NCBI GenBank assembly: GCA_009602725.1
Contig: WELB01000084.1
Span: 1-24,750, forward strand
Direction of reading: 5' to 3'
DNA from: Spirogloea muscicola
Lineage: Eukaryota; Streptophyta; Zygnematophyceae; Spirogloeales; Spirogloeaceae
Length of the DNA: 24,750 bases
Shown: positions 628 to 17,199 of the stretch, in pieces
Layout of the letters: each line of letters begins with the position of its first letter
Position numbering within the stretch: the stretch's first letter is position 1
The notes under the pieces: generated by a model
Databases searched by the model: none
What the model saw: the letters and a program-made list of their open reading frames with translations, nothing else
Told to the model about the DNA's origin: nothing
Made by a program: the position numbers and the translations under genes

Positions 628-1290
628 CTAGCCTTCCACAGCCTCCATCTCAGCCGCCAGCATTGCTTTGATCGCGGGGCGGTCATGGCAGCGCTTGAGC
701 CAAGCTTGCAGATTAGGCAACGCGGTGAGATCGACGCTCATGAATGTTAGCCAGCCAACCAGGCTTTGTAGGTGCGTGTCAGCCAAGGTGTAGTCCCCGA
801 GCAAGAACTGCCTGCCGTCCAGGCCGGTTTCCAGGATGCGGAGGCGTGAGTCAAGGTCCTCTCGAGCCTTGCGCTCGGCGTTGTGCTCCTTGGGAAGGTC
901 GTCCCTGGAGCCGGGCTCGACAGCCCCACCGGTGCCGGGTTGAAGCGCGTGAGACAGGCGGCCGGCCGCCTCGGCCAGCGTGACATTGGCCCAGGTGATC
1001 CACTTCATGGCTTCCCCGCGGCGGGGGCCCGGAGGGGGGTAGAGGCCGGCGTCGACGCCGAAGGTCTCGCCGAGGTACATGGTGATGGCGGCGGACTCCC
1101 AAATGGGCGTGCCGTGGTGCACGATGACGGGCACGCGGCCGTTGGGGTTGAGGCGGACGAAGTCGGGCTTGCGGGTGTCGCCGGCCTGGATGTTCAGCTG
1201 CACGCGGTCGCAGGGCGTGCCGAGCTCGGCCAGCACGTCGACGGTGATGCTGGCGGTGGACATGGGGGAGTAGTAGAACGTGAGGGTCAT
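628..1290 (-). CDS. Glutathione S-transferase, bacterial-type, single exon
   Basis: Predicted 220-residue cytosolic GST, a normal length for the superfamily; such enzymes conjugate glutathione to electrophiles or act as peroxidases. The N-terminal thioredoxin-like domain (residues 1-80) begins MTLTFYYSPMSTAS and contains NPNGRVPVI, with the conserved cis-proline, and WESAAI, the glutathione gamma-glutamyl binding segment. The rest is the all-helical C-terminal domain, including FLLGDYTLADTHL. I chose the ATG at 1290 because the GST fold starts immediately. The frame stays open to an ATG at 1434, which would add 48 Pro/Ala-rich residues, possibly an organelle-targeting peptide. The YYSPMSTAS start and the lack of introns resemble proteobacterial GSTs more than plant tau or phi classes, so bacterial ancestry is possible but untested. 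The stop is TAG at 628-630. It is the gene nearest the telomere. Confidence 0.88.
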   Translation of the reverse strand: MTLTFYYSPMSTASITVDVLAELGTPCDRVQLNIQAGDTRKPDFVRLNPNGRVPVIVHHGTPIWESAAITMYLGETFGVDAGLYPPPGPRRGEAMKWITWANVTLAEAAGRLSHALQPGTGGAVEPGSRDDLPKEHNAERKAREDLDSRLRILETGLDGRQFLLGDYTLADTHLQSLVGWLTFMSVDLTALPNLQAWLKRCHDRPAIKAMLAAEMEAVEG

Positions 1291-1550
1291 GGCGGCGGGC
1301 GGGGAGGACCGCGGAGCGGGCCCGTGGGGGGAGGAGGGGTGTGGGGGTGCAGGCTTGCGGGCAGGCGGCAATGAATAGAAAAGGCGCGGCGTGCAGTGGT
1401 CCTTGGCATTTGCTGCCACCTGCGTGCAGGCCACCCCTTGGCTGGTGCCTCCGGGTTCCGTTAGGGAGACGCTTTTCCGTCCTTCAGTACTCTGACTTGC
1501 ACTTGCTAGAGTAGAGGTTACTAAGAGCAGAATCTAGTGCAGGATAAACA

Positions 1551-1771: not shown

Positions 1772-2735
1772 GAAAGACGCTTCCAGGGAAAGGGCGGTGG
1801 CTGGGAGAAAGTGACACTCCCAATGAGGACTGTGGGAAGCCAGCCCGGAAAGTCTTGACAAGGTTCAAAGGGGCCAAACTATGAAGGGGCCAGAAGCGTT
1901 ATCTCGCTGGGAGAGGCCAGCCTAGAGAAGGAATGAGCAAAGACAACAACTGCAGAGGCTGCAGCTGAGGCACGACGAGAAGGACGCTTCCGGGAAAGGC
2001 GTCGGACCGGGAGAACGAACAGCGCTGCCAAATTAACTGGTGGCGGAGAGCGGTTGTTTAGCGCAGGACGGAAGGCGCGTGGTGCGCATGATATGAAAGC
2101 GTGGCCAGTCCAAGCCAATACATTGGTCAGGCATTATCAAGTGCCAAATAAAGAAGGCTACATAAAACGGATCCCTATGCTAAGGTGCCTAAGGTAACAG
2201 AGTGACATTTGTACCCACGGGTGAGCACATGCAAGTGGAGAAAGCGTGGCCCAATTGACTGGTGGCTGTGAGAGGCCAGCCCAAGGGAATGGAGAAGGTC
2301 TGAAGGAGCCAGATGGAGCTGAAAGCAAGGTACCAAGTGCTAAGACGGCAGCAAGGGGACTCTCAGTAACCTATAGTCAGTAGATGCAAATCGGAATAGC
2401 TAGCAGTGGATGCAAATCGACAAGCTCACTTGGGGAGCCGGAGCGCCGCCACGGAAGCCGGTGGCCTGACTTGGAGCGCGCCCTGCACGGGAGGGGGGCG
2501 CTTGGTGGGGCAGCTCAGCGTGAGGGGGGGGAGCGGGGCAGGAGGGGCGGCGCCTCGTTGACCGCAGCGGGAGTGCCGTCTGGCGGGCTGTCTCGCTCCT
2601 TTTCGGTGTTTCGGTATCTCGCATGCGGCTGGCGGTCTCGTTCCAGCGCTCTCTGGCTCTCGCATTCCACACGCGCGCCGGCCGGCTATGGCTGCCCTCT
2701 AGGTCTCAGCGGAGTGCCTCTTTCACACATGGGCC

Positions 2736-3072
2736 ACGTCTTATCCTGGACGCAGTGACCACAGACGCATACGACCGCTCACACCCAGCCCAATGTGCCA
2801 TCAAGGCTGGGTATGCGGTCGCCTGCGCCGTTCGAGCTAAGGAGCTCAAGTATGCTGATCATCCGCGGGAAGACGAGTTCTTCCCGCAGGCTATCGACAC
2901 GCATGGGGCGTTGGGCGCTCGGTGGCTCGAGCTGCTCAACCAATTCGCCCGCCACGCCATCGTCCGCCGCTTCCATGGGAAGCCAGTGGCCTTTCCTGCA
3001 GCCGCGTCGCTAGCGCAGGTGTACCGGATGCGCTTGACCGTCTCGCTGCAGAGAGAAGGGCTCGCCCATTGA
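2736..3072 (+). pseudogene. Retrotransposon endonuclease-domain fragment
   Basis: This is the C-terminal part of the family protein, starting GPRLILDAVTTDAYDRS and running through KAGYAVAC, DEFFPQ and VYRMRLTVSLQ. The acidic-beta-strand pattern LxLDxVTTD fits the central strand of a PD-(D/E)XK fold (inference). Upstream RT, zinc knuckle and first acidic motif are absent. The frame leaves family sequence at about 3055, reads into an inverted 3' UTR fragment and terminates. Confidence 0.75.
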
Positions 3073-3149
3073 GGATAGGGGCTGGAAAAAGCCAGCCCCT
3101 GGCCCCCTTCTTGTACTTTGGGACCCCTATCCTCAATGGGCGAGCCCTT
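3056..3149. repeat. Perfect 26-bp inverted repeat from two opposed 3' ends
   Basis: Arms 3056-3081 and 3124-3149 are perfect reverse complements (AAGGGCTCGCCC to ATAGGGG) separated by 42 bases. Each arm is the variant-B 3' terminus of the retrotransposon, once on the minus and once on the plus strand. The left arm is followed by a hairpin of its own, GGGGCTGG/CCAGCCCC at 3078-3099. The palindrome thus comes from two elements inserted in opposite directions. Confidence 0.85.
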
Positions 3150-3593
3150 TCTTGGCGCGCTGTGTCCCGCAGGCGCGGTGAGCCGGCTGACTTCAACGCC
3201 GCTGGCTCGTGGGCTCAGGTATACTGTATGCGTTTGTCCGTCTCCCTTCAGCGGTCCTTGGCCCACGCCTTGCATCTGCGTGCTGGCCGTGCTCTCGCTG
3301 CGGCCTCCGGCTTTCGTCAGGGGGATAGTTTTCCGGCAGCTAGTTTGTCGGATTTGAGGCTCCTCACTCGTAACTACTGAGTGGTCCATCCTCCCCCGTT
3401 CTGACATAGCATCTTCAGGGCCCTTAGTAGCTGCTAAGCGCTTTTTAGGCCCCTCCATCATTTGGCCCCTTCGAAACTTTGTCGATTCTTTTACGGGCTG
3501 GCTTTTCACAGCCCTTTCCCCCATTGGGAGTGCCACATCTGTCTCTTCTTCTTTCCCAGCTTCGAGTAATTCTGACTTGCTGTTACTCACTCG

Positions 3594-3612
3594 TTGGGAG
3601 AGCCACTGTAGT
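3594..3612 (+). repeat. 19-bp tail fragment inserted with ACTCG duplication
   Basis: ACTCG occurs at 3589-3593 and 3613-3617. The 19 bases between (TTGGGAGAGCCACTGTAGT) resemble the end of the family 3' UTR, ATTGGGAGTGCCACTTCTT. Removing them and one ACTCG restores CTCACTCGTGGGTAC as found at 16963-16980. This may be an extremely 5'-truncated insertion. Confidence 0.55.
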
Positions 3613-3663
3613 ACTCGTGGGTACTGAGCTTCCATCTGCATCATCTCGTGTCTAGTTGTGTAG

Positions 3664-4000
3664 TTTTCTCCTTTTTTGGCACCCTGTTTGTGACCTTTGG
3701 AAATTTGTCCATTCTATTCTGGGCTGGCTTTGCTAGCCCCTCTTTGTTTATGGGCGAGCAATTTCTTCCGGCCTGCTAGTCTTTCGGGCAGGCTGTTCAC
3801 ACCCTTGCCCCCTTTAGGAGTGCCACTTCTTCCTTGGGGAGAGCCAGCCACTTCTTCGTTGGAAGAGCAGAAGAAGAAAGGGCTCGCCCATTGAGGATAG
3901 GGGCTGGAAAAGCCAGCCCAAAAAAGGAGGAACAAAGTACGGGAATGGGGCGTGGGGAAGAGCCACTTTCTTTCTGACTTGCGGGTACCGATTGGGGGTT
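3664..4000 (+). mobile_element. Head-to-tail retrotransposon 3' UTR fragments
   Basis: Noncoding family sequence. A hairpin lies at 3721-3739 (GGGCTGGC, TTT, GCTAGCCC, with one G.U pair), followed by TATGGGCGAGCAATTTCTT, a 3' terminus. Further tail copies follow (GGAGTGCCACTTCTT near 3826, then AGCCACTTCTT). The block is interrupted by a minus-strand solo-tail insertion at 3869-3955. Confidence 0.7.
3869..3955 (-). mobile_element. Solo hairpin-tail insertion, 87 bp, 8-bp TSD
   Basis: GGAAGAGC occurs at 3861-3868 and 3956-3963. Between them lies a minus-strand copy of only the end of the retrotransposon: about 35 bases of upstream sequence, the hairpin GGGCTGG/CCAGCCC (3901-3919), the terminus and a CTTCTTCT tail. 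Removing it restores GGAAGAGCCACTT, a motif also present at about 12377. Confidence 0.75.
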
Positions 4001-4164
4001 AGTAAGTGATTATCATACAGCGAGAGATGGAGTAACGGAGGGACTGAATGGCCAGGTACAAAAGCAAGCAAGTAGCAGGAGGATGGGGGCCAGCAGCCCC
4101 CCCCCGGCGCCCGGAGAACAAGGACATGGAGTGTATCAAGGGATGGTGGTGGTGTGTCAAGTGA

Positions 4165-6635
4165 TGGAGGAAGAGAGAGAACAGCGCCTCGTTCAAGATC
4201 ACGCTCAAGCGCTCCCATCCCCCCCCCACTGCCTCCGCATGCACTCTGCCGGCTTCTTGCCAGCCGCCCCCCTCCCCCCCCTTTCCCTTGCGTCTCGCGC
4301 CCCGNGCCCTCCGCGCTCCCCGCGCCCTCGCCCTCCGCGCGCTCGCCGCCTCCGCGCCCTCCCCTGCCGGCCCGCCCGCTCTCTCGCCGCACCACCTGCC
4401 CCTCAAGCACCTCGCCTGCGCCTGCATCGGCGACAACCAGCGCCTCGGCAGCCAGCAGGTGGCCCTCCTCGACGACGCTCGGGTGAGCACCCTCGGCCGC
4501 CCTGCTGCAGCCTCGCGCTTGTGACGCAACCAGCCCTGCGCCTGGGGTTTGGGTGCCAGCGCCCTCAGCCTCTCGGCTCAAGCTGAGTGCCGCACGCCAC
4601 TCCTCACACGCGCCGCGCTGGGGCGCTACGTGGCCGCTCTGGTGGCAGAACGAGGAGGTCATACACGACCTGCGCGTGGCCCTCCGGCGTCTCAGGACCT
4701 CCGTGCACCTCTTTGGCCCGGTCCTCGGTTGGCCTCCTCACCAGCACCCCTTGTGCCAAAATCGTGTCACCCACTGCTCTGACGCACGGACATCAAGCTC
4801 ACTCTCTGAGCCACGCACAAATCGCTCCGACTTGCCCCTCATACCCTTCCTCGTTGACCCGGCCGATCGTGTCTCCACTGCCAGACTTACCCAAAGGAGG
4901 ACAGGCGAAGCACATCTCCCGCGCTCTTCGGGTGCTCGGGACTCTGCGCGACGCCGATGTCATGCAGGTGCACGGCTGAGCATATGAAGGACGGCATGGG
5001 CCCTTTGCTTCCAGGAGCGCTACATCTCGTTACAGTGGCCGCTTGGAGACACGATTGTACTGCAGCAGTGTCGCATGTGGCGGCTAGAAGGGGGCTGGTG
5101 GTGCAAACTTCTGATTCTTTTTGGGCCGAGCATTGAAGCAGCAATGCGACTCACTGCTGGGCTGAATGGGTTGTTGTCTCATAGGCGACGTTGGAAGAGG
5201 CCGTGGCAGGGGGAGATTTCTCTGAGAAAGATACAGAAGCTGTTGAGTCTGCACGCGACGTCCTCTCAGAGCACAGGGAGCAGGCCATTCGACACGTCAT
5301 GCGTGTGCTACATGGCAGACGTACAAGCAAACTGCTAGATACACTTGAGGTGAGCCAGCACTGCATGAAGCCTCACCTGGCGTTCACAACCTGCGAGGGA
5401 CAGCTCATTGGCAGGCTGCTAGTTTAATCAGATGTAGGTGGCTGGCATTTGTACGTGCTTCTTTTATTGAGAGCACTGACAAACAGGGTGGCTTTGTCGC
5501 AGGACTGGGTGATGACACCTGCATTCAAGAAGAAAGCCAAAATCTTGACAGAGGAGATGGCCGGGCTAGCTGCGCCCTCGCTGGTCATGCCTTATGTCAC
5601 TTCCATGCTTCTGCATCCAGCCTGGCGGATAGATGGTACACTGCACTTCTCATTTCTAAACAGAGCGCTGTCTTGAGTAGGATGATAGTCCAATAGATGT
5701 CGCATATGGATGCACTGTGAGCACGTGTGCAGAGGTAGGTGCAGCCAGCTTGCAGATTGGTGCTTCAGTGTCGTTATCAGATGATACCGAGTGCATCCCC
5801 TTAGCAAACGTACTTGGTGCTCTTACTGGCCAGACATTGAGATCAAATCAGAGAAGGGGAAGGGGAAATCGGATGTGATTGGTGATACAAAGAACACTGC
5901 CAAGGGTCATGGAGTGCATATAAGCACGGCTCGAAGCAGTGCAGTGCATGACCTTCGTAAACACATGCGAGGTTTCCTCCAGCTCCTTTCAGCAGCTTTG
6001 GAGCTGCGGTGTTGATCCTTCTCAGTTGCTTCTTGGGGCTCACGGATACTAGTATGTGTGTCCTTGCATTGGCACCAAGACTTGAAGAGATTTGCTGTGG
6101 CATGAACAGCCTCTACAATCGCATTCTTACTTATGGTGCCTGGGGTAATCTGCAGAATTGCGATATGTGATGGAGCTGCTAGGTGACCTATACAATGGGC
6201 ATCCACGATACAGCCGGGAGCTGAAGCAACTGAAGCACATGCAGGACACCCTAGGCAATCTGCAAGACCTGGAAGTGCTCTCAGGGTTCCTACGGTCGCA
6301 TCTTCTTCGATCAGGCCACACACTCCTGCGCCATTTGGCTACAAGGCAGCTGCAGGCAAGCAACTGCTCCACTGGAGAGGCTTGAGGCACATTGCAGTGT
6401 GGCTGTGTTGGCACGCCAATCCTAGCTCACTTAACAAAGTGAGCAACTGTGTTCCCTGATGCAGGTCTGGAAAGAGTGGCTGGATGCAAGATCCGAGCTT
6501 CTCAGCATCCACGGGCGAGCAAAGCTGATGAAGGCCCTGAGTAATCCAAAGCTGGCTAAGACGAGTAATGAAGAGGAGCATTTCAACGGCGTACCTGCAA
6601 GTCGTATGGACTCAAAGGTGGCCTTGGTTGCTTGA
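4165..6635 (+). CDS. CHAD-domain protein, eight exons, 5' end unresolved
   Basis: CHAD domains are conserved histidine alpha-helical bundles that bind inorganic polyphosphate. Exons, with phases that close: ?-4482, 4649-4727, 4885-4967, 5185-5349, 5503-5635, 5834-5971, 6156-6355, 6465-6635 (stop TGA 6633-6635); exons 2-8 encode 322 residues. Both CHAD half-repeats are visible: VIHDLRVALRRLRT with LGTLRDADVM in the first, and AVHDLRKHMR spliced to ELRYVMELLG with LKQLKHMQDTLGNLQDLEV in the second. These show the His-x-x-Arg signature and the LG-x-x-(R/Q)D segment twice. Intron 7 has a GC donor (CAG|GCAAGC). I see no CYTH (triphosphatase) domain, a common CHAD partner. Exon 1 is open from 4165 in the required frame but has no ATG; the ambiguous base at 4305, or another upstream exon, may hide the start. 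The N-terminus is Pro/Ala/Arg-rich and could include a targeting peptide. Confidence 0.85.
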
Positions 6636-7495
6636 TTACCAAACTGCTCAATGTTGTGCTTCATAGCCCGGGGTTTGTGCAGTTCTTCATTGTCTGCACT
6701 GTTGTTTGTGAGACGGAGTTTGTGCCTCCTTGTGCTACTGAGTATCTTGTAGTGCTTGTCCCGTAGAGTGGGATCAGATTTTGGTGCCTTGTCAGCTCTA
6801 GTAATGCACCTTCGACCACCATAGATTGGTGTTAAGGTGCTAATTTCGGAACGAGTAAAATATGCATCAACTGGCTGATTTCATAGTTCGGAGTTGCCTC
6901 TTTGTGCTTAGTACCTTGGACTGCTTTGTCCCATAGATTGGGAGCAGTTCTGGTGCTTTGCCACCACATCAGTGCAACTCCAACCACCATAGAGTGGTGG
7001 TCTTTTCTGTGACCAGTAAGATATGCAGACTTGTACAGGATTTGCGCTTCAGTGCACGCTTTACGATCTTGCAAGCCCTTTCACAATTGTAGTCGCGATT
7101 TGCAGTTACTGCTGCCATTCTGAATGGGGTGTAGTGAAGCAATCCAAGGTTGGTCAATACTGTGTGGCAAGCATTTAATCAATACCTTTCATGGCCTCGA
7201 TAAAGTTTGATCTGGAACGTTGCAGGAGGAAAAAGCATAGCAGAATGTGTGCTACACATAATGCAGCAGCACTTAATGCAGCAGTCTCTGAGGGCCCAAG
7301 CGTCAGGAAGGAAACAAACGAGGCAGAGACCTGGTCGACAGGGAGGGGCAACCCCAGCAGCACTGCAGACATCCTTGTAGCTTAGGAGACAGTACTTTCA
7401 GAAATGCAGAAAACAATGGACGGTCCTCTCGCACTGAAGGAGCCACTTCTCGCTGGATGATCCAGCTCATGCGAGTCGGCTCCATTCAAGCCTAG
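6636..7495. other. Convergent intergenic region (3' ends of CHAD and UBA5)
   Basis: This 860-base interval separates two genes that converge on it, so it should hold both 3' UTRs. I see no coding sequence with homology and no retrotransposon fragment. It contains the imperfect tandem duplication at 6721-7040. Its base composition is lower in GC than the exons. Confidence 0.6.
6721..7040. repeat. Imperfect tandem duplication, period about 171 bp
   Basis: Two diverged copies, about 6721-6880 and 6892-7040, share GCCTC-TTGTGCT, AGTA-CTTG, TTGTCCC-TAGA-TGGGA-CAG, TGGTGC-TTG, AC-ACCATAGA-TGGTG and AGTAA-ATATGCA in the same order. The copies differ by substitutions and small indels, indicating an old duplication in the CHAD 3' flank. 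Confidence 0.75.
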
Positions 7496-9816
7496 CTACT
7501 GAGAACCCAGAGCAGCCAAGAGTTGTTGAAGATCATCCAGATCTATGTCGTCATCTGCAGATAAGGCCTGCACTTTCAGGTCGTGAGCATCAACCTGCTT
7601 GGCTCTGGGCAGGTCTCGCTGCAAGCCCTCCGGCAGCTCCTCCACACCTGGGACCCAGCGGAAGCGCAAAAAGGAAGTCAGCAGAGTGCTGGCGAAATTT
7701 GCCTTTATGGGCGATTCAATGGTATTATTGTGACAAAGGAACTTGTAATACCTGCAGAAGACGAGGGCCTTTGGGTCGTCCCCTCTGTTTGCAGACCATC
7801 ATCAACGCCCACACTGCACGCGATTACCTGGGTGGTCGATCAGACTGGAGTTGGACAAAGCTGGGGCCTGCTCCGCTGACAAGTGGAGAATGACTTTGAC
7901 AAGACCTGATATTCCACTCGTTGTCTGTGTGAAGGGGCATCGACAAGTCCTGCTCAGCCTGCTCCGCAGCACGGCCCAGCGCTGCAGCTGATTCACGCTG
8001 GGGGGCTCCGGCTGCATGCTCTGCCTGCCGCAGCCTGCAGGCGTCGTTTGTACATTGCTCGTTAGGTCGCAAGACCATGGTGGGGAAGAAGTCCTTCAAG
8101 GCGTTGTACCCCAGATAGGCCGACACCGTCCCAAACCCGAGCAAATGCTTGAAGGCACTCTGCACCAAGAGGCCTGCCACTATGCCCTGCACAACGATTG
8201 TGCAGGCAGGGCTCCGCTTTGCTCAGTGCTGGCACAAAGAGCAGCTGAGGAGCTGCGTGCACAGAGTTGGAGGCGGATCACGGCCAGCTCACCATGGTGG
8301 TCGGCAACGATGCGGCACAAACGCCCTCACGCTTGAGCGTGCGCTCGTCGACACCAGTCGCAACCACCTGCACAAACCGCGGCATCCCATGAGCAGGCGA
8401 GGGCCAGCAGCACAGCGGCAGCCCATCAAGATAGAGGCAAGAAGCTCCAGTGCCACTGCAGCTATATCGGAGGAGTGCTGACCAGCGGGGGCGCACAGGC
8501 AAAGCAGGCAGTCTCTCCTGGAATCAGCAGCTGCACATGGCCCGACACAGCATCTTCAGACACACCTGCCACATAGCAAAGTCAACGCAGGAGCAGGTCG
8601 TCACCTCCTCTACGCTCCGCGCCTCAGTCCAGGACGTCTAGTGCAGGGCTGTGTAGGGCTGTGACAGTGGTGTACCTGACTCCATCCACGTCTGGCCCAG
8701 CTCATTGCAGGCCTGCAATGCAAGCTCCACCGTGGGGTTGCCGCAGACTTGTCAGGATGCCTGTGCATACGACAGGATGCCAAGTCATCACTGTTGGCTG
8801 CTGGACTGTGCATGGAGGAAGGACCTGATTGACGACCATGCGAGCTTCGTAGTTATCGACGCAGGATAGCACGAGGTCCACGCCGGGTGCCGCTTTGAGG
8901 CTGCTCATGAAGGCCTCGAAGCCATCAACGGTCGTGATGTTGAGAGTGAAGCTCTACATTTGTCGCAGCTCTTTACTGTCAGTGTTGAGGCGCGAGAGGG
9001 ACCAGCAGAGCACCGAATCAGCTAACATGCTGTGCAGCGAACTGATGGCCGACGTACCTCGAGCACGACGTCAGGGTTGATGCCAGAGAGCGTCTGTACA
9101 GCAGCGTCGGTCTTGGTCATACCAGCCTGCTCTTGGACGCGCATGCAGACAAGTCTCAGGCCCGCGCTTGCTGTTGGAGACATAGGAGGGGTTTGGAGGC
9201 CGGGAGCAGGGAGCAGGGCGCAGAGTTCAGGGCTCTAGCCCCAGACTCTGAGCTTTGGGCTCCAGGCTTCCACGTTTAAGGCTCTGTGGCATTCGGGAGC
9301 AGACCCACTCTGGGGACCTGCTTAGCATTGACTTTTCCGAGTGCAGGGAAGCCAGCTGTGAGCTCGGGCGTCGTGGGCTCCCGCTTCTTCAAAGCTAGGG
9401 CTCGAGCGGCTTGGTGCCCGGAGCTCGGAGCCTAATGGGTGGTGCAGAGAGCTCGAGCTCCAGGCTCGAGGCTCGAGGCGCTCAAGACTCTTACTTCCAC
9501 TCCGGGCTGTTGGACTCGCCCCCACAGGGCACAATGTGACGAGCAGCAGCCCCCCGTCTTCCTCCACCCGTGCGGGAGGGGGATGCGGGCGGGTGGGGTG
9601 GGGTGGTGGTGCGAGTGCCTGGTCGGGCCGGAAGAAGAGGCGGTTCATGTTGGCCAGCTCCACGGTGTCGTAGTCGTAGAGCAGGAGGCGGCCGATGCCG
9701 CAGCGCGTCAGCATCTCGGCGGCCACGCTGCCGACGCCGCCGACGCCGACGACGGCGACGGAGAGGTCGCGGATGGCCTGGTAGTTGGCGACGATGCCCA
9801 TGCGCTGCAGCGCCAN
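7496..9816 (-). CDS. UBA5: UBA5, UFM1-activating E1 enzyme
   Basis: UBA5 adenylates UFM1, takes it onto a cysteine as a thioester and passes it to the E2 UFC1. Exons on the minus strand: ?-9619, 9126-9058, 8953-8825, 8712-8676, 8565-8483, 8367-8293, 8186-7906, 7813-7752, 7647-7496 (stop TAG 7498-7496). From the ATG at 9801 they give 356 residues; the human protein has about 404. Visible motifs: GVGGVGS (ATP loop), [53 protein letters not shown] and QCTNDAC (zinc cysteines), and [15 protein letters not shown] with the catalytic cysteine. DNEWNI (exon 7) matches the UFM1-interacting/LIR segment, and [12 protein letters not shown] matches the acidic C-terminal helix. Intron 1 has a GC donor (CAG|GCACTC). 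An upstream NTG codon at 9816-9814 could be ATG if the ambiguous base is T on the plus strand, so the true start is unresolved. Retrotransposon debris begins about 120 bases upstream. Confidence 0.92.
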
Positions 9817-9934
9817 CGCGCGCCGCTCCGCCCCGCCCGCGGCCGCGCTGCCACCTCTCGTCGTTCACAGCCCGCGCCCGCTGCTGCTGAGCAGCCAGGG
9901 GGCGGGGGGCTGCGGCCACCGGTGGGGGCCTCGT

Positions 9935-10035
9935 GAGAGAGAGCGCGGCCACATTGCCTGGTGGCTGGGAGAGGGCCGGCCCAACCGGAATGGACAAGGT
10001 CAGAAGAAGCCAGATGGTACCAAAGGGCTAAGGCG
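9935..10035 (-). mobile_element. Minus-strand retrotransposon 3' UTR fragment upstream of UBA5
   Basis: The reverse complement reads CGCCTTAGCCC, GGTACC, TCTGGCTTCTTCTGACCTTG, TCCATTCCGG, then the hairpin arm GGGCCGGC, and ends GGCCGCGCTCTCTC. It aligns with the 3' UTR at about 16785-16857 and with 2090-2340. Only the 3' end is present. It lies in the presumed 5' flank of UBA5. Confidence 0.7.
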
Positions 10036-10214
10036 GCCCACGCCCAAGTCTGTCGCATGCGACTAGCCGTATCCCTTCAGCGGTCCCTGGCCCTAGCTTT
10101 GAAGCAAGCGCGGCCAGATGACCTGATGGCTGGGAGAGGCCAGCCCAAACGAATGGACTCGCTTTGCACCTGCGTGCTGGCCGTGCTCTCGCTGCTGCCT
10201 TGGCTTTCGGCAGG
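10036..10214 (+). mobile_element. Outer retrotransposon copy, left part
   Basis: A C-terminal fragment reading AQVCRMRLAVSLQRSLALAL, broken at 10101 by a solo-tail insertion, resuming at 10161 as LHLRAGRALAAALAFG and ending at about 10214. The rest of this copy (CFPPASLSALRLLTRY, stop, 3' UTR) appears at 11486, after the 1.27-kb insert 10215-11485. The outer copy is therefore split twice. Confidence 0.72.
10102..10160 (-). mobile_element. Solo hairpin-tail insertion, 59 bp, 6-bp TSD
   Basis: GCTTTG occurs at 10096-10101 and 10161-10166. The 59 bases between are, on the minus strand, CCATTCG, then GGGCTGGCCTCTCCCAGCC (hairpin), then CATCAGG and a GGCCGCGCTTGCTT terminus. Removing the insert and one GCTTTG rejoins the coding sequence in frame (LALALHLRAGR). 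Almost nothing but the hairpin and tail was inserted. Confidence 0.82.
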
Positions 10215-11371
10215 AGGCGGGCGGCGTACCTCGGCAGCTGGGCGCAGACAGCCGCTTCCGTGGCCCGGCGCTTCTTGGTCCACGGCCGGCGTGCGCTGGA
10301 GCAGGCGGTGGCGGATGGTAGAAACGGGTGTGCTGCCTTTCCAGGCGTCGCTACGCTCCGCCCACCAGGAGCTGCTCGCGGCGCACCCGGACCTGGCGGG
10401 CCAGGCGGTCTCCTTTGCGCACCTCGCGCACACCGCCGACCTGCGCGTCCAAGCCCGCTTCGCAGCCGCGATGGACGAGGCCGCCTTCACCACCGCCTTG
10501 CTGCAGCTCCCGGAGGCCGACCTGCGCGGGCGCGCGAGACTCCACTCGGCCTCTTCCCCGGGGGCCGTGGCGTGGCTCCAGGCCCTCCCCCTCAACGACG
10601 CCCTCACTTTCCCGGACGAGGTATTCCGCAGTGCCGTCCACCTGCTCCTGGGCCTGCCGCCGCCATGCCTCCAGGGTGTGCGTCAGTGCGAATGTGGCGA
10701 GCGAGGGGCCGAGCCTGGGGAGCTGGCCGCTCATGTTCTGCGCTGTTCCCACGGCGGAGAGCGGACAGCGGCCCACGACCGCCTCCGGGATGCGATGCAT
10801 GGCATCCTGGTGGAGGCTGGCTTCTCGGTGGCAGCGGAGAACTCCGCCGTCATGCCGCTCCAGCAAAGGGCCGACGGTCTCCACGCACGTCGCGTAGACC
10901 TTGTGGCCATTCCACAAGCCGGCGGGCCACATCTTATCCTGGACGTAGTGACCACAGACGCATACGACCGCTCCCACCCAGCCCAATGTGCCATCAAGGC
11001 TGGGTATGTGGTCGCCTGCGCCGCTCGAGCTAAGCAGCTCAAATATGCTGATCATTCGCGGGAAGACGAGTTCTTCCCGCTGGCTACCAACACGCATGGG
11101 GCGTTGGTAGCGGTGGCTCGAGCTGCTCAACCAGCTCGCCCGCCACGCCATCTTCCGCCGCTTCCATGGGGAGCCAGTGGCCTTTCCTGCAGCCGGGTCG
11201 CTAGCGCAGGTGTACCGGATGCGCTTGGCCGTCTCGCTGCAGAGGTCTGTGGCCCGCGCGCTGCACCTGCGTGCCGGCAGAGCCCTCGCTGCTGCCTCTG
11301 CCTCTGGCCAGGGGACCCACTTCCAGGAGCCTAGCTTCTCTGACCTGAGGCTGCTTAGCAGGGGTTACTGA
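10215..11371 (+). pseudogene. Retrotransposon zinc-knuckle plus RLE-type endonuclease region
   Basis: This is the best-preserved C-terminal half of the family protein. Order: the post-RT helical segment (LGSWAQTAASVARRFL; HPDLAGQAVSFAHLAHTADL), a Cys-His knuckle (QCECGERG, then HVLRC), RTAAHDRL, then RRVDLVAI and, 12 residues on, LILDVVTTDAYDRS, then KAGYVVACAARAKQLKYADH. The Arg/Asp, Asp and downstream Lys/Tyr pattern after a zinc knuckle fits the restriction-like endonuclease of R2/CRE/Utopia-type LINEs (family knowledge; the assignment is inference). Two frameshifts kill it: near 10317, and near 11104, where two bases are missing relative to sibling copies. The tail FSDLRLLSRGY and stop are in the shifted frame. 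Confidence 0.78.
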
Positions 11372-11485
11372 GTAATACGTAGCTGCTTTGTTTCTTGTTG
11401 TGCCTGTTTTTCTTAGCGCTTCCCCCTTCTCGTAATTTGTTCTTTTTTGGGCTGGCTTTTCCAGCCCCTATCCTCAATGGGCGAG
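10215..11485 (+). mobile_element. 5'-truncated retrotransposon inserted in an older copy
   Basis: This 1.27-kb block starts in the post-RT region (RRAAYLGSWAQTAASVARRFL) and ends at the 3' terminus TCAATGGGCGAGCCCTTTCTT-type sequence at 11469-11485. The 3' UTR follows the stop at 11369-11371, with the hairpin GGGCTGG/CCAGCCC at 11449-11467. The sequences flanking the block belong to a single older copy (see 10036-10214 and 11486-11735). I could not find a clear target-site duplication. Confidence 0.75.
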
Positions 11486-11735
11486 CCCTTTCTTCTGATT
11501 GTTTTCCGCCAGCTAGTCTGTCGGCCTTGAGGCTCCTCACTCGTTATTGAGTGATTCATCCTTCCCTAGTCTAGAGCGAGCGCCTCTGGCCCCTTCGTAG
11601 TTTGGCCCCTTCGAACCTTGTCAATTCTTTTTGGGCTGGGATCTTACAGCCCTTGCCCCCATTGGAAGATTTAGGCCCCTCCGTCATTTGGCCCCTTCGA
11701 ACTTTTGTCAATCTTTTCGGGCTGGGCTTTCACAG
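11486..11735 (+). mobile_element. Outer retrotransposon copy, right part, and 3' UTRs
   Basis: Resumes the copy begun at 10036: CFPPASLSALRLLTRY and a stop near 11547, then a 3' UTR with TTTGGCCCCTTCGAAC, hairpin GGGCTG/CAGCCC (11633-11652) and CCCCCATTGGAAG. A second 3' UTR segment follows at once (TTAGGCCCCTCCGTC, hairpin 11719-11736), so two family tails are concatenated here. Confidence 0.68.
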
Positions 11736-12231
11736 CCTGAAGAGGCTATGGCAGAACGGGGGAGGATGGACCACTCAGTAGTTACGAGTGAGGAGCCTCA
11801 CATCCGACAGACTAGCTGCCGGAAAACTATCCCCCTGACGAAAGGCGGAGGCCGCAGCGAGAGCACGGCCAGCACGCAGATGCAAGGCGTGGGCCATGGA
11901 CCGCTGGAGGGAGACGGACAAGCGCATACGATATACCTGAGCCCACGAGCAGGCGGCGTTGAAGTCAGCCGGCTCACCGCGCCTGCGGGACACAGCGCGC
12001 CGTGCAAGCCTGGCCAACAGGTCGAGCCAGTGGGATCGAGAGCCCCGTGCACGTCCACAGCCAGGCGGGACGCACTCATCGGCGGCCGGGTGGTCGGCGT
12101 GTTTGGCCGCCTTGCTGCGAGCGGCCTTCGCCGCAGCGTGGCCAGCCCGCGAGGCAGAAAGCCCCGGTTTAGGAGCGGTCGACCACATCAGTGGTGACCA
12201 CATCAGCATTGATGCGCCCATCCTCTTCAGG
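11736..12231 (-). mobile_element. Inverted retrotransposon segment between 10-bp inverted repeats
   Basis: CCTGAAGAGG (11736-11745) and CCTCTTCAGG (12222-12231) are exact inverted repeats bounding this segment. On the minus strand it encodes the family C-terminus, starting at a degenerate endonuclease strand (DVVTTDVVDRS, stop) and ending LSDVRLLTRNY with a stop, then a 3' UTR start (GAGTGGTCCATCCTCCCCCG, CATAG). Re-inverting the segment joins CATAG to CCTCTTCAGG followed by CTGCTTAGC, which matches the intact 3' UTR at 3405-3440 and 12481-12515. Local inversion after insertion is the simplest reading; twin-primed insertion is an alternative. Confidence 0.72.
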
Positions 12232-12615
12232 CCCCGCAGTCGCTGCTTAGCTCGTACTTTGGCCCCTCCGAACCTTGTCAACTCTTTTCGGGCTGGCTTC
12301 TCACAGCCCTTGCCCCCCATTGGGAGAGCCATTTCTCTTTCACAGCCCTTGCCCCCATTTGGAGTGCCACTTCATTGGAAGAGCCACTTCTCTCTCGGGG
12401 ATAGTTTTCCGGCAGCTAGTCTGTCGGATTTGAGGCTCCTCACTCGGAACTACAGAGTGGTCCATCCTCCCCCGTTCCGACATAGCATCTTCAGGCTCCT
12501 TCGTAGCTGCTTAGCGCTTAGGCCCCTCCATCATTTGGCCCCTTCGAACCTTTGTCAATTCTTTTTCGGGCTGGCTTTTCACAGCCCTTGCCCCCATTGG
12601 GAGTGCCAGTTCTTT
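12232..12615 (+). mobile_element. Array of concatenated retrotransposon 3' UTRs
   Basis: Several family tails follow one another: hairpin 12290-12309 (GGGCTG/CAGCCC) with CCCCCCATTGGGAGAGCCATTTCTC; another CACAGCCC and CATTTGGAGTGCCACTTC; ATTGGAAGAGCCACTTCTC; a C-terminal stub (CGGCAGCTAGTCTGTCGG to a degenerate stop, 12408-12455) with its own 3' UTR; and hairpin 12568-12587 with CCCATTGGGAGTGCCAGTTC. Most junctions fall just after a CACTTCT-like terminus, as if new copies had landed at the ends of old ones. Confidence 0.72.
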
Positions 12616-12695
12616 CTCTCTAAGACGGCAGCAAGGGGACTCTCGGTAACATCCAGTCAGGAGATGCAAATCAAATTAGCTAGCAGGCAGATAGA
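12616..12695 (-). mobile_element. Minus-strand retrotransposon 3'-end fragment
   Basis: AAGACGGCAGCAAGGGGACTC and GATGCAAATCAAATTAGCTAGCAGGCAG match the minus-strand block at 2342-2405 and are the reverse complement of 16722-16795. It is a short 3' end whose coding part is limited to the last codons. Confidence 0.75.
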
Positions 12696-12759
12696 CGTAG
12701 CCCACCAGCTAAGTTGTGCCACTTGTGCCACCAGCTGACAACAGCCAGCAACAGAAAGA

Positions 12760-13703
12760 GTGGACAGAAGGCCCAAATGGGCCGAAAGCATACCAGTGTT
12801 CCTCCCTGGCGACGAGGCCGCCTGGAGGGTCTATATCCTCTTCCCCAGGCTGCTGCTCTGGCGCGCACCCCCACAGGGCCACGGCCAAGGCCGCCAGCTC
12901 CTGTTGGACCGCATCTACCTCTTTGAGTGCGTTGGGAGGAGCTCCTGGCGCGGCATGACGCTGCGGTGGCTGCGGCCATACAGCCGGCCGCCGCACTTCG
13001 CAGACGGCTCCTTCACCAGACAGGGCGGCCATGTCCGCCGCGCTCTCCGGAATGGCCATGCCGGGGAGCTCTCGAGAGCCGTCCAGGCGCTGGATGATTC
13101 GGTGTTGGCGCCGGCAACTGAGGACACGCGGCAAGCCCTCTCGTCCCTCCCCCCCCCCGGCACGCTCTCCCCTGCCTTCGTGGTTGGCCTCCTACGTCCA
13201 GCAGGAGGAGGTGGCCATTGAGGCTGCAGCTTTTCGCAAGGCCCTGCAGAGCAGCCGGCACGCAGCTGCAGGCGGCCCCTCGCGCATAGTTACGGAGCAT
13301 TTGAGGGAGCTCTTCCTCGAAGGGGACGAGGCGGACTTTCGGGCGCTGCACCAGGTGTGTCAACACACGGCCCGGGGTCACGTCCCTGCCAGCATTCGCG
13401 CCGTGCTCTGTGCCAGCACCCTGCTGGCCCTCAGCAAGGTCACTGGCGGCGTCGCCCCATTGCCATCGGCGAGGTCCTGTATCGCCTGGTGGGACGGGCA
13501 CTTTGGCACTAGCATGCAGGTGCGGCCCAGACAAACCTGGCACAGCACCAATATGGCGCCGACCTGCCGAGCGGCGGCGAGGCAGTTGTCCATGGGGTGC
13601 GGGCTTCCCTTGACCTGCACCCAGAGTGGGTGGTGCTGGCGGTGGACGTCCGTAATGCCTTTAACTGGGTCGACCGCGCCGTTGTCGCCGAGGGGTTCCG
13701 TGA
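12760..13703 (+). pseudogene. Retrotransposon linker and RT N-terminal half (host copy, part 1)
   Basis: Left half of the longest copy in the window. 12760-13190 encodes the pre-RT linker (LPGDEAAWRVYILFPRLLLW; GGHVRRALRNGHAGELSRAVQAL), typical of the segment before RT in zinc-knuckle/RLE LINEs. A frameshift near 13190 moves to FRKALQSSRHAAAGGPSRIV and LLALSKVTGGV (RT motifs 0-2). Another near 13450 leads to VVLAVDVRNAFNWVDR (RT motif A with its catalytic Asp) at about 13630-13675. The reading frame stops being RT at TCCGTGA (13697-13703), where the insert 13704-14818 begins, and continues at 14819. The 5' end of the element is not identified. Confidence 0.78.
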
Positions 13704-13973
13704 CCGCCTGGACCTGGCGGGCCAGGCGGTCTCCTTTGCGCACCTCGCGCACACCGCTGACCAGCGCGTCCAAGCGCGCTTCGCAGCCGCAATGGACAAG
13801 GCAGCCTTCACCACCGCCTTGCTCCAGCTCCCGGAGGCCGACCTGCGCGGGCGCGCGCGATTCCACTCGGCCTCCTCCCCGAAGGCCGCGGCGTCTCTCC
13901 AGGCCCTCCCCCTCAATGAGCCCTCACCCTCCCGGACGAGGCCTTCCGCAGTGCCGTCCACCGGCTCCTGGGC

Positions 13974-14693
13974 TTGCCGCCGCCATGTCTCCAGGGTGTG
14001 CAACAGTGTGAGTGTGGTGAGCGAGGGGCCGAGCATGGGGAGCTGGCCGCTCATGTTCTGCGCTGTTTCCACGGCGGAGAGCGGACAGCGGCCCATGACC
14101 ATCTCCGGGATGCGATGCATGGCATCCTTGTGGAGGCTGGCTTCTCGGTGGCAGCCGAGAACTCTGCCGTCATGCCGCTCCAGCAACGGGCCGACGGTCT
14201 CCACGCTCGTCGCGTGGACCTTGTGGCCACCCCACCGGCAGGCGGGCCACGTCTTCTCCTGGACGTGGTGACCACCGACTCCTTTGACCGCTCACATCCA
14301 ACCCAGTGTGCCACCAAAGCTGGGTATGCGGTAGCCTGCGCAGCTCGGGCCAAGAAGCTAAAATACGCAGATCACCCGCGGGACGACGAGTTCTTCCCGC
14401 TCGCCATCGATACGCACGGGGCGCTGGGCGCTCGGTGGCTCGAGCTGCTCAACCAGCTCTCTCGTCACGCCATTGCCCGCCGCTTCCATGGGGAGCCGGT
14501 GGACTCCCATGCAGCAGGGTCGCTAGCGCACGTGTACCGCATGCGCTTGGCCGTCTCGCTGCAGAGGTCTATGGCCCGCGCGCTGCACCTGCGTGCAGGC
14601 AGAGCCCTCGCTGCAGCCTCTGGCTCTGGCCAGGGGACCCGCTTCCAGGAACCCAGTCTCTCCGACCTGAGGCTGCTTAGCAGAGGTTACTAA
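13974..14693 (+). CDS. Retrotransposon zinc-knuckle/endonuclease ORF, longest uninterrupted
   Basis: An open frame of 239 residues, part of the insert at 13704-14818, beginning in family sequence MPPPCLQGVQQCECGERG. It holds the Cys-His knuckle (residues about 12-35, ending HVLRC), RTAAHDHLRDAMHGIL, the presumed endonuclease motifs RRVDLVATPPAGGPRLLLDV and VTTDSFDRS, KAGYAVACAARAKKLKYADH, DDEFFPLAID, RWLELLNQ and the conserved tail VYRMRLAVSLQRS, HLRAGRALAAAS and SDLRLLSRGY. The first ATG shown is not a true start; the frame is a 5'-truncated fragment without RT and is not expected to be expressed as an enzyme. Confidence 0.7.
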   Translation: MPPPCLQGVQQCECGERGAEHGELAAHVLRCFHGGERTAAHDHLRDAMHGILVEAGFSVAAENSAVMPLQQRADGLHARRVDLVATPPAGGPRLLLDVVTTDSFDRSHPTQCATKAGYAVACAARAKKLKYADHPRDDEFFPLAIDTHGALGARWLELLNQLSRHAIARRFHGEPVDSHAAGSLAHVYRMRLAVSLQRSMARALHLRAGRALAAASGSGQGTRFQEPSLSDLRLLSRGY

Positions 14694-14774
14694 GTGCTTC
14701 CGTAGCTGCTTCGTTTCTTTTCTGTGCTTAGAAGGCTCCTCTTTCTTTGGCTTTGGACATTGTCAATTCTTTTT

Positions 14775-14795
14775 GGGGCTGGCTTTGCCAGCCCC
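14775..14795 (+). other. 3'-terminal RNA hairpin of the retrotransposon (best example)
   Basis: GGGGCTGGC and GCCAGCCCC form a perfect 9-bp stem closed by TTT, ending 23 bases before the 3' terminus of the insert. Equivalent hairpins occur on the plus strand at 3495-3514, 3721-3739, 11449-11467, 11633-11652, 12290-12309, 12568-12587 and 17080-17098, and on the minus strand at 3078-3099, 3901-3919, about 10129-10147 and 17229-17250. The role as an RT recognition site is inference by analogy with stringent-type LINEs. Confidence 0.8.
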
Positions 14796-14818
14796 TCTTC
14801 TCTATGGGCGCGCACTTC

Positions 14819-16728
14819 TCCGTGAGGCCTTCCCCACCCTGCTGCCGTTCTTCCGGCTCGGCTACGGCCAGTCCAGTGATCTCCTCTGGCGGAATTGCAC
14901 CTGCGGCGTGGAGGTCCTCCAGTCTACCTCAGGCACGCGTCAGGGGGACCCAGTGGCGGGGTTTATCTACGCGCTGGCGCATGACCGCGCCCTGAAGGCG
15001 ACGGCAGCTGCTCACCCGGGCGTCCTCATGCCCACCTATGCCGACGTCACCACGCTGGTGGGGCCGCCGGACGAGGTCATGGCAGCCTTCGACACCCTCG
15101 AGGAGCAGCTGAAGGAGATCGGCCTGGACATCCGTGCAGCGAGGGGCAGCGCCTGGTAACCGCAAGGCTTGCCAGCCCTCCTCCGCCTGCCCTCCGGCTG
15201 GCAGACACCAGCCGGGGGCCTCACACTCCTCGGGGTTCCACTGGGCTCACCCGCCTTTGTGGACGAGCAGCTGCGCGGCAAGCTGCAGGAGCACCTCAAG
15301 CCGGCGGCCCGCCTCCCTGAGCTGCACGACATGCAGCTGGCTCTCGCCATGCTGACGCAGAGCATTGCTCAATGTCCCCTGTACCTGGCTCGAGCCCTCC
15401 CCCGCTCCCCGGCGGCGCAGGCCGCCTATGCAACCTTCGATGCAGGTATCCTGGCCAGCACAGCGGCCCTGGTCTAACACCAGGCCTTCCTGGAGACGCC
15501 GGCTGCGGTTCAACAGGCCTCCCTTGCCTGTGAGCCGCGGGGGTCTGGGCTGCCGTCCGCTGGCTCGTGCCTGCCGGGCAGCACACCTGAGGAGCTGGGT
15601 AAGGTTGCGGCTTCGGTGGCCCAGCATTTCATCCTGCATGGGGGTCGCCTCCTGGAGCAGGCGGCAGCGCACGTGGAGACCGGCACATTGCCATTCCAGG
15701 CGGCTCTCCGCTCTGCCCGGGATGCGCTGCTCGCGGATCACCCCGCCCTGGTGCCGCGGGCCGTCCCTTTCACGCACCTTGCACATACGGCCGACCTCCG
15801 GGCCCAAGCTCGCTTCATGGGATTTGGGTTTAGGATTTAGGGTATGATGCGGCCTCATCCGCCGCAGCAATGGGGCTTTTGCATCTGGACGACCTCCGGG
15901 GACGCGTGCGGCTGCTCTCGGCATCCTCACCGGGGCGGCAGCTTGATTATCTGCCCTGCCGATGTATGACGCGCTCCGGATGCCGGACGACGCCTTCCGC
16001 ACGGCTGTGCACCGCCTTCTCGGCCTACACCCACCCTGCCTAAGTGGGTACAGCAGTGCAAGTGCGGCGAGCGCAGCGCAGACGCGGCATCGTTGGCAGC
16101 CCATATGCTCAGGTGCACACAGGGAGGGGAGCGGACCGGCACACACGACCTGCTCTGGAACGTAATGTTCGGCATCTTTGTCGAGGCCGATTACACAGTG
16201 GCGTTGGAGAGTTCCAGCATCATGCCTTTGACTGCTGAGCCGGATGGCCGCCTTCACACCCGGCGCGTCGATCTCGTCGCCAGCGCGCTCCGCTGGGAAC
16301 TACGGCTCATTGCCGACGTGATTACCACTGACTCGTTTGATTCTAAGAGCGCCAAACGCTCGTCGGAGGAGGCGGGCTACGCCGTCCGCCAAGCGGCGGC
16401 CGTCAAGACACGGCAATACTCGGATCACCCAGTGGGAGACGAGTTTGTTCCACTTGCCGTCGACGTCCACAGAAAGAAATGTTTTTCTGGGACAAAATGG
16501 CTTGACCTTCTTCACCACCTTGCGCGGCGTGCAGTGGCCCGCCGCCACGGGCAGCAGAGCGAGCAGCCTGGCTTCAATGTCGCCGGGTCCCTCGCTCAAG
16601 TCTTCCGGATGCGCTTGGCCATTTCTGTGCGGCGGTCCCTTGCCTTTGTAGTTCACTTGCGCGCAGGCCACGCTTTGGCTGCGGCCTCCGGCTTCCGTCA
16701 GGGCAACATCTATCCGCCTGCCTGCTAG
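14819..16728 (+). pseudogene. RT C-terminal half through endonuclease (host copy, part 2)
   Basis: Continues in frame from 13703. It reads EAFPTLLPFFRLGYGQ, then SGTRQGDPVAGFIYALAHD (RT motif B) and PTYADVTTLVGPPDEV (motif C, 15031-15066), where the second catalytic Asp of YADD is Val (codon GTC, 15046-15048). A frame break near 15159 precedes LTLLGVPLGSPAFV; a stop at 15475 and a shift precede LPVSRGGLGC. A telomere-like insertion lies at 15818-15842. After LHLDDLRGRVRLLSASS more shifts occur; the zinc knuckle (QCKCGERS, HMLRC) and endonuclease (RRVDLVAS, LIADVITTDSFD) are readable from 16065 to 16728. Multiple lesions make it a clear pseudogene. Confidence 0.82.
15818..15842 (+). repeat. 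Interstitial telomere-like sequence in the retrotransposon
   Basis: Degenerate TTTAGGG units: TGGG, ATTTGGG, TTTAGG, ATTTAGGG. They replace about a dozen bases of the coding sequence between the codons for ARF (ending 15816) and the next alignable codon at about 15846, and introduce a stop at 15838-15840. Sibling copies (10458-10475, 13768-13795) lack them. Confidence 0.75.
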
Positions 16729-17199
16729 CTATTCTAATTTGCATCTACTGACTTGAGGTTACTAAGAGTCCCCTTGCTGCCGTCTTAGCACTCAGTACCT
16801 TGCTTTCTGCTCCATCCGGCTCCTTCAGACTGTCCATTACTTTGGGCTGGACCTCTCCCTTGCCCACGCCGTCCACACGCGCGCAGGCCGTGCTATGGCC
16901 GCCGCCTCTGGGTCACGGCGGAGTGCCTCTTTCCCTGCAGCGAGCTACTCAGACCTGATGTTGCTCACTCGTGGGTACTGAGCTTCCCTGCATCGTCTCT
17001 GTGTTCTGCAGTGTTTTGTAGTGTAGTCCTTTTTTCCGGCTCCTTTTTCTTTGGCTTTGGACATTGTCCATTCTTTTTTGGGCCGGCTTTGCCAGCCCCT
17101 CCTCTCTATGGGCGCGCGCTTCTTCTCACAGCCCCCGGTCAATCTGGTCTTGGGCTCCGCGGTCGAGGCGTCCGCGCTCGGTGGCACCACTGCAACAGC
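16729..17199 (+). mobile_element. Host 3' UTR interrupted by a nested insert (16858-17123)
   Basis: The 3' UTR of the host copy runs 16729-16857 up to GGGCTGGACCTCTC, then resumes at 17128 with ACAGCCCCCGGTCAATCTGG; joined, it matches the minus-strand copy at 2240-2275 (GGGCTGGCCTCTCACAGCC, AGTCAATTGGGCC). The insert (16858-17123) is a 5'-truncated C-terminal fragment (HTRAGRAMAAASGSRRSASF to LLTRGY, stop near 16980) with a 3' UTR, hairpin 17080-17098 (one C.A mismatch) and terminus ATGGGCGCGCGCTTCTT. TCTC lies on both sides (16854-16857, 17124-17127), a weak 4-bp duplication. Confidence 0.7.

What the first reader, a model, noticed from the sequence alone, without database searches (positions are those of the whole stretch)
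10102..10160. 59-bp 'solo tail' retrotransposition event: hairpin plus terminus only
Seen: GCTTTG at 10096-10101 and 10161-10166 flanks 59 bases that are just the minus-strand hairpin and 3' terminus of the family, landed inside the C-terminal coding sequence of another copy. Excising it restores the frame. Known: LINE reverse transcription starts at the 3' end, so extreme 5' truncation leaves the part recognised first. Inference: the hairpin and tail lie at the point where reverse transcription begins, and such mini-inserts could seed a SINE-like population.
Basis: partly seen in the sequence, partly recalled or inferred. Interest (0 to 1): 0.82.

Follow-up and report, generated by a model that had tools for sequence, protein, structure and literature searches.

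The report
Stub end of a jumping gene
A 65-base disruption in the genome of a photosynthetic organism is the last few dozen letters of a copy-and-paste jumping gene that stopped copying almost at once; about two thousand similar tails lie elsewhere in the same genome, so the event is a clear but ordinary product of a known mechanism with unusually severe shortening.

Summary
The insertion is real: the host copy gained 65 nt (10102-10166), and 28 places elsewhere in the genome carry the stretch uninterrupted. The insert is the last 56-57 nt of a retrotransposon, on the minus strand; the duplication is better read as 9 nt with one mismatch (10093-10101 / 10158-10166). The tail end occurs 2190 times (35-mer, up to 3 mismatches; reversed control 0). 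In 80 exact copies fetched, one end is fixed and the other ragged: 34 of 73 simple copies match the tail for under 80 nt, 4 for over 425, whereas a related copy has a 1,338-codon frame. Duplications stand in 28 of 76 copies, 3.2% in shuffled pairs. A few compound tails fit template jumping. The reverse transcriptase is nearest to R2 proteins among solved structures; the endonuclease region has KX2KY, but its CCHC spacing departs from the published one. Target-primed reverse transcription with extreme 5' truncation is well supported. The SINE-like extension is not: stops are scattered and no 5' head was found. Covariation does not prove the hairpin. Verdict: new member of a known kind, with notably severe truncation.

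The parts
10102..10158 (-). 3'-terminal 56-57 nt of the retrotransposon tail (my type T1); element sense is the minus strand, its 3' end at 10102
   Evidence: base 10158 may belong to the element or to the duplication
10093..10101 (+). left copy of the target-site duplication, CTAGCTTTG (reader: GCTTTG 10096-10101)
   Evidence: the uninterrupted relatives suggest the A is a later change
10158..10166 (+). right copy of the target-site duplication, CTCGCTTTG (reader: GCTTTG 10161-10166)
10128..10146 (-). hairpin 1 of the tail (GGGCTGG...CCAGCC in element sense), shared with my tail types T2-T5
   Evidence: alignment; stem conserved in sequence, no compensatory change
10114..10126 (-). second small hairpin of T1 (CCAG...CTGG in most copies; imperfect here)
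10042..10101 (+). host: C-terminal coding sequence of another element copy, upstream part
10167..10211 (+). host: C-terminal coding sequence, downstream part, in another frame because of the 65-nt addition
9942..9995 (-). a diverged T1 tail just upstream of the host fragment
   Evidence: 85% over 54 nt
2239..2293 (-). another diverged T1 tail
   Evidence: 80% over 55 nt
13920..14693 (+). related element copy with an open C-terminal frame (knuckle-like CCHC, RRVDLV, DVVTTD, KX2KY)

Best explanation
A non-LTR retrotransposon, probably of the kind that carries a restriction-like endonuclease, nicked a cousin's coding sequence after ...GCTTTG, used the freed 3' end as primer, began copying its RNA at the fixed 3' end, and stopped after 56-57 nt, just past the GGGCTGG hairpin. 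Second-strand cleavage and repair left a 9-nt duplication. Shown: insertion, empty sites, fixed 3' end, ragged 5' ends, duplications in excess of chance, a reverse transcriptase in the wider family. Inferred: that the tail RNA is what the protein binds, and that the enzyme falls off early rather than that short RNAs serve as templates.
For: Empty sites. 2190 tails; 941 matches to a 35-mer lying 55-89 nt inward, a rough sign that many copies end before it. Of 73 simple copies, 16 match the tail for less than 60 nt, 34 less than 80, 44 less than 100, 4 more than 425. Duplications of score 6 or more in 28 of 76; control 3.2% of 753 shuffled pairs. Primer-side preference: G at -1 in 45 of 80, A at -3 in 39 of 80, z 5.4 and 5.8; the window insert also follows a G. 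T1-to-T2 tail junctions in L029, L030 and L079 (3 of 80); 17 genome matches, 4 of them exact, to a neighbouring junction form; the compound in L030 is enclosed by an exact 8-nt duplication, a length reached in 2 of 150 mismatched pairs. A related copy has an open frame of 1338 aa with RVT_1 (E 3.3e-16), its best solved relatives being R2 proteins (E 4.8e-7 to 1.6e-6).
Against: 48 of 76 copies have no duplication at score 6. The other two T1-T2 compounds have no clear duplication (L029 six nt, L079 a C-rich run). The CCHC spacing departs from the published one. The endonuclease was not recovered by Pfam, by a PDB profile or by a good model. No complete T1-type element was read: of five long T1 loci fetched (L101-L105), two show a family C-terminal frame (318 and 186 aa), none a whole one, and two have long N runs; the 1338-aa frame belongs to a relative with another tail.
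Confidence: 0.9

Rival explanations
1. A SINE-like or short-RNA population: stable short tail RNAs, with their own 5' end, are the templates, so the insert is a full copy of a short RNA.
For: 8 of 69 copies end within 61-63 nt; 17 copies share one T1-T2 junction form, which could descend from a mosaic source copy.
Against: 56 distinct extents among 69; the cluster is not significant (0.089 of resamplings); no tRNA or Rfam head in the window; 29 of 73 simple copies match the tail for 100 nt or more, continuous with the element body.
Confidence: 0.08
2. The 59 nt are native to an ancestral host sequence and other copies lost them.
For: Three loci (L001-L003) show tails within a few nt of the same place in other host copies.
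Against: By my reading of the flanks, L002 has a 13-nt and L003 a roughly 10-nt duplication of other sequence (L001 is unclear, about 3 nt), and the hosts are of other subfamilies; 28 close relatives have the site uninterrupted with a single GCTTTG or GCCTTG.
Confidence: 0.02
3. The enzyme targets its own family's C-terminal coding region, so the location is not random.
For: Four tails (window, L001-L003) within about 7 nt of one position, with differing flanks; 53 of 80 left flanks match a small library of this repeat nest, 2 of them self-matches.
Against: The query spanned this very site, which selects such copies; the family is abundant (21310 first-look candidates), so a few coincidences are expected. 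The number of host copies was not established, so no proper test was possible.
Confidence: 0.12

Closest known systems
R2-type (restriction-like endonuclease) non-LTR retrotransposons
   Same: One long frame with a weak N-terminal zinc-finger match, a reverse transcriptase nearest to R2 among solved structures, a C-terminal CCHC set and KX2KY; 3' end fixed, 5' end ragged; chimeras that fit template jumping
   Different: Dispersed with a base preference rather than one site; short variable duplications; CCHC spacing C-X1-C-X12-H-X3-C instead of CX2-3CX7-8HX4C, and GX2W instead of GXW (PMC5678591, passages seen)
HERO clade
   Same: Restriction-like-endonuclease elements, many of them non-specific in target (PMC4640811, passages seen)
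   Different: No HERO sequence was available here; clade not tested
R2 SIDEs of Drosophila (PMC3414825; abstract and Discussion read)
   Same: Very short elements that keep the 3' end which starts reverse transcription
   Different: SIDEs also keep the 5' ribozyme and propagate; the present insert is 3' end alone
LINE/SINE pairs with a shared 3' stem-loop
   Same: A similar 3' hairpin tail in several subfamilies
   Different: No SINE head found; structure not supported by covariation. PMC6510757 seen as a search listing only

Membership tests
Non-LTR retrotransposon inserted by target-primed reverse transcription | reverse transcriptase in the family | tested here: met
   PF00078 E 3.3e-16 in a related 1338-aa frame; not read in a T1-type copy
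Non-LTR retrotransposon inserted by target-primed reverse transcription | fixed 3' end with variable 5' truncation | tested here: met
   Extents 35 to over 425 nt. The pattern itself fixes AAGCAAGC; the test is that the flank next to it differs: 79 different left flanks among 80
Non-LTR retrotransposon inserted by target-primed reverse transcription | target-site duplications | tested here: met
   28 of 76 against 3.2% of 753 shuffled pairs
Restriction-like-endonuclease LINE (R2 group) | KX2KY motif after the D residues | tested here: met
   KELKY, KQLKY, KERKY and, in one row, KTRQY; first K and Y in 4 of 4 rows; definition from passages of PMC5678591
Restriction-like-endonuclease LINE (R2 group) | CCHC knuckle with spacing CX2-3CX7-8HX4C | tested here: not met
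   C-X1-C-X12-H-X3-C in 4 of 4 rows; so I say 'works like'; membership is probable, not filed as proven
[quoted passage not shown]
   predicted order helix, three strands, helix, strand fits, but mean pLDDT 46; Foldseek lists R2 entries at ranks 6 and 10 with E 0.03-0.04 among other folds, none at E 0.001
R2 (28S-specific) | one target site in 28S rRNA genes | tested here: not met
   flanks of 80 copies are diverse, with a base preference only; rRNA genes were not searched for in the flanks
SINE | own head/promoter and a shared 5' end | tested here: not met
   56 distinct extents of 69; no tRNA or Rfam match in the window
R2 SIDE | 5' ribozyme joined to the 3' end | tested here: not met
   the window insert is 3' end alone (comparison); no Rfam ribozyme in the window

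The most novel reading that the evidence does not exclude
In this lineage the enzyme gives up so early that the main product of retrotransposition is a 35-100-nt hairpin tail, thousands per genome, and jumps between tails of different subfamilies build mosaic 3' ends that can be copied again, so that subfamilies exchange their recognition modules.
Probability: 0.25. Interest if true: 0.6.

Novelty: new member of a known kind. Interest (0 to 1): 0.42.

Why it matters
Thousands of near-minimal inserts with a common start point map where reverse transcription begins and where it stops, in a retrotransposon that looks like the deep-branching R2 type, in a photosynthetic eukaryote. My seven literature searches (two returned none, the others only their first listings were seen) showed me no paper on such a family there, which is a limited search. 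They also show that very short, easily overlooked insertions of 35-100 nt can add to small insertions in coding sequence.

Tried and rejected
Hotspot in the family's own coding region: three more tails at nearly the same place (L001-L003), but the query selected for it and host copy number is unknown; not claimed. SINE-like length class at 61-63 nt: not significant. Compensatory changes in the hairpin: none in helix 1; the five cells with two-sided change (reached by 10 of 500 shuffles) are all in helix 2, whose alignment between tail types is doubtful; 83.1% of cells pair, against at most 55.8% when slid, but 63 of 500 shuffles reach it. Shuffle z-scores of folds run from -0.29 to -1.30 for four tails and -3.21 for one T4 tail. 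Endonuclease identity by Pfam, by PDB profile and by fold: nothing significant. A 23-mer search for shorter inserts was ill-designed, because H includes the consensus T; I fetched 20 regions from its list that lacked an exact 35-mer: by eye 12 are point variants, 5 are joined to other tail sequence (L107, L108, L114, L121, L126), L118 stops near 35 nt, and two (L112, L124) match only 25 nt without a clear duplication. Literature: searches returned no paper; some gave background.

Dropped rows: of the 100 places listed, 80 were fetched. Left out were 5 places already inside earlier loci, the neighbour C5:382636, and the 8 places on C29 and 6 on C32. All 80 have 0 mismatches in the 35-mer and lie on contigs C2 to C28, so they are probably younger than average and cannot show inserts under 35 nt; L031 and L070 share their left flank and may be one event. 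For lengths, 7 rows (L025, L029, L030, L041, L046, L057, L079) were set aside before counting 73; on a second look L057 is rather a simple insertion inside another tail, and three rows kept as simple (L051, L072, L080) have another T1 tail close by, as L060 has an inverted piece of the element. For duplications, 4 rows longer than the fetched stretch were set aside, leaving 76. In one search two left-flank hits (L036 to L101, L081 to L104) are the same locus.

Full report
What is there. The window is contig C84:1-24750 of a 153-Mb eukaryotic genome. The genome gives 68 exon-level matches to the chlorophyll a/b-binding family, and one of the frames matches chloroplast chlorophyll a-b-binding proteins of solved structure, so it is a photosynthetic eukaryote; its name is not known to me.

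Insertion shown by empty sites. With the insert and one flank copy left out, the host reads 94.6% identical over 112 nt (one gap) to an uninterrupted copy in L005, and its frame continues as SLALALHLRAGRALAAA. A 35-mer across the empty junction finds 28 uninterrupted copies at up to 3 mismatches, none in the reversed control. Nine loci match the two host halves side by side, overlapping by 5-9 nt. Long copies of the family read GGACAAGG at the far end, whereas here it is GGACTCGCTTTG; the duplication is therefore better read as CTAGCTTTG / CTCGCTTTG, nine nt with one later change, and the element part as 56-57 nt. The net addition is 65 nt.

A large family of tails. The 35-mer at the tail's end occurs 1113 + 1077 = 2190 times at up to 3 mismatches, reversed control 0. 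A 35-mer lying 55-89 nt inward occurs 461 + 480 = 941 times. I fetched 80 of the 100 exact places listed. Next to AAGCAAGC the flanks differ (79 different ones; L031 and L070 share theirs), while the other side is ragged. Of 73 simple copies, 5 match the tail for less than 45 nt, 16 less than 60, 34 less than 80, 44 less than 100, and 4 for more than 425 nt; the median for all 80 is 79 nt. The lower limit near 35 is set by the pattern. Extents come from alignment to long copies and can be a few nt too long where flank and element agree by chance.

Duplications. Exact or near-exact duplications of score 6 or more occur in 28 of 76 copies; in 753 shuffled pairs the rate is 3.2% (a first version gave 34 of 75 at six or more exact nt against about 6%). 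Lengths are 6-9 nt in 25 of the 28, with three longer (11, 13, 16). In 19 of the 28 the duplication directly adjoins AAGCAAGC; in the rest one to five extra nt intervene. The base before the tail is G in 45 of 80, with A favoured at -2 to -4; since the duplication itself ends in G in 11 of the 19, this is at least partly a target preference. The window insert fits...GCTTTG. The 48 copies without a duplication at that score remain unexplained; age, compound events and blunt or deleted ends are possible.

Template jumps. In L029, L030 and L079 (3 of 80), and in L107, L108 and L114, the T1 tail is joined after about 35 nt to the 3' end of another tail type, T2. The junction form of L107, L108 and L114 has 17 genome matches, 4 exact; L029 and L030 have a slightly different form. 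T2 itself has 3635 matches. In L030 a T1-T2-T1 compound is enclosed by an exact 8-nt duplication, TCCGAAAG; 2 of 150 mismatched pairs reach eight nt or more, and L029 and L079 show no clear one. This fits one event with two jumps, but another T1 copy follows directly, so a more complex history is possible, and a repeated junction may also mean a mosaic source copy. R2 enzymes jump between templates in vitro (PMC8857657, abstract), and jumps in vivo have been inferred from R2 junctions (PMC3414825, abstract and Discussion).

The machinery. A related copy with another tail has an open frame of 1338 aa with RVT_1 at E 3.3e-16 and a zinc-finger match below the curated cut-off; the only convincing solved relatives are R2 proteins. 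The C-terminal part has a DLV motif (RRVDLV or RRADLV), DVVTTD or DVITTD, and KX2KY, as described for restriction-like-endonuclease LINEs (PMC5678591, passages; the first two motifs are from recall), but its CCHC spacing differs from the published one, and GX2W stands where GXW is described. Pfam, a PDB profile and a poor structure model gave no significant endonuclease match. I therefore say it works like an R2-type element and probably belongs to that wider group; the clade is untested. The family is dispersed, whereas four clades of that group are mostly target-specific and HERO holds many non-specific ones (PMC4640811, passages).

The hairpin. Tail types T1 to T5, named by me, share GGGCTGG...AGCC, most of them after a TTGTC-ATTCT-like box. 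The stem is conserved in sequence; on 13 sequences helix 1 shows no pair changed on both sides, and the covariation score is reached by 79 of 500 shuffles. The window copy folded alone prefers another structure; the four other tails folded do form helix 1, but only one folds better than shuffles by a clear margin (z -3.21). So a recognition role is plausible, by analogy with R2, where the 3' end is needed to start (PMC3414825), but structure is not shown.

SINE-like claim. Nothing here shows that the stubs are copied again: extents vary (56 values in 69), no shared 5' head was seen, and no tRNA or Rfam family is in the window. They look like dead-on-arrival copies.

Verdict. What is unusual is the degree of shortening and the number of stubs.

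Noticed in passing
L001 (C53), L002 (C32), L003 (C22): Tails sit within about 7 nt of the same position in other host copies, with differing flanks; the search that found them was biased to this site.
   Followed up: partly
L117:468-789: A 109-bp tandem array of three perfect units, each holding a T1 tail plus a reversed tail end, next to an inverted tail.
   Followed up: partly
L030 (C5:382305-382909): TCCGAAAG stands on both sides of a T1-T2-T1 compound and directly before another T1 copy, as if one nick site had been used twice.
   Followed up: partly
L041, L046, L060: A tail followed by an inverted tail or inverted element piece: at once in L041, after some tens of nt in L046, near the truncation point in L060; perhaps twin priming or a second event.
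   Followed up: no
L027, L057: T1 tails that appear to have landed inside another tail (a T2 and a T1 tail).
   Followed up: no
window 2236-17126: Dense nest of at least four tail types and C-terminal fragments on both strands.
   Followed up: partly
L112, L124: Matches of only 25 nt to the tail end, both followed by (C)ATAGTGG; possibly still shorter inserts or another junction.
   Followed up: no
window 9322-9864 (-) and 628-1533 (-): Frames that look, from recall only, like a UBA5/ThiF-type enzyme and a glutathione-transferase-type protein.
   Followed up: no
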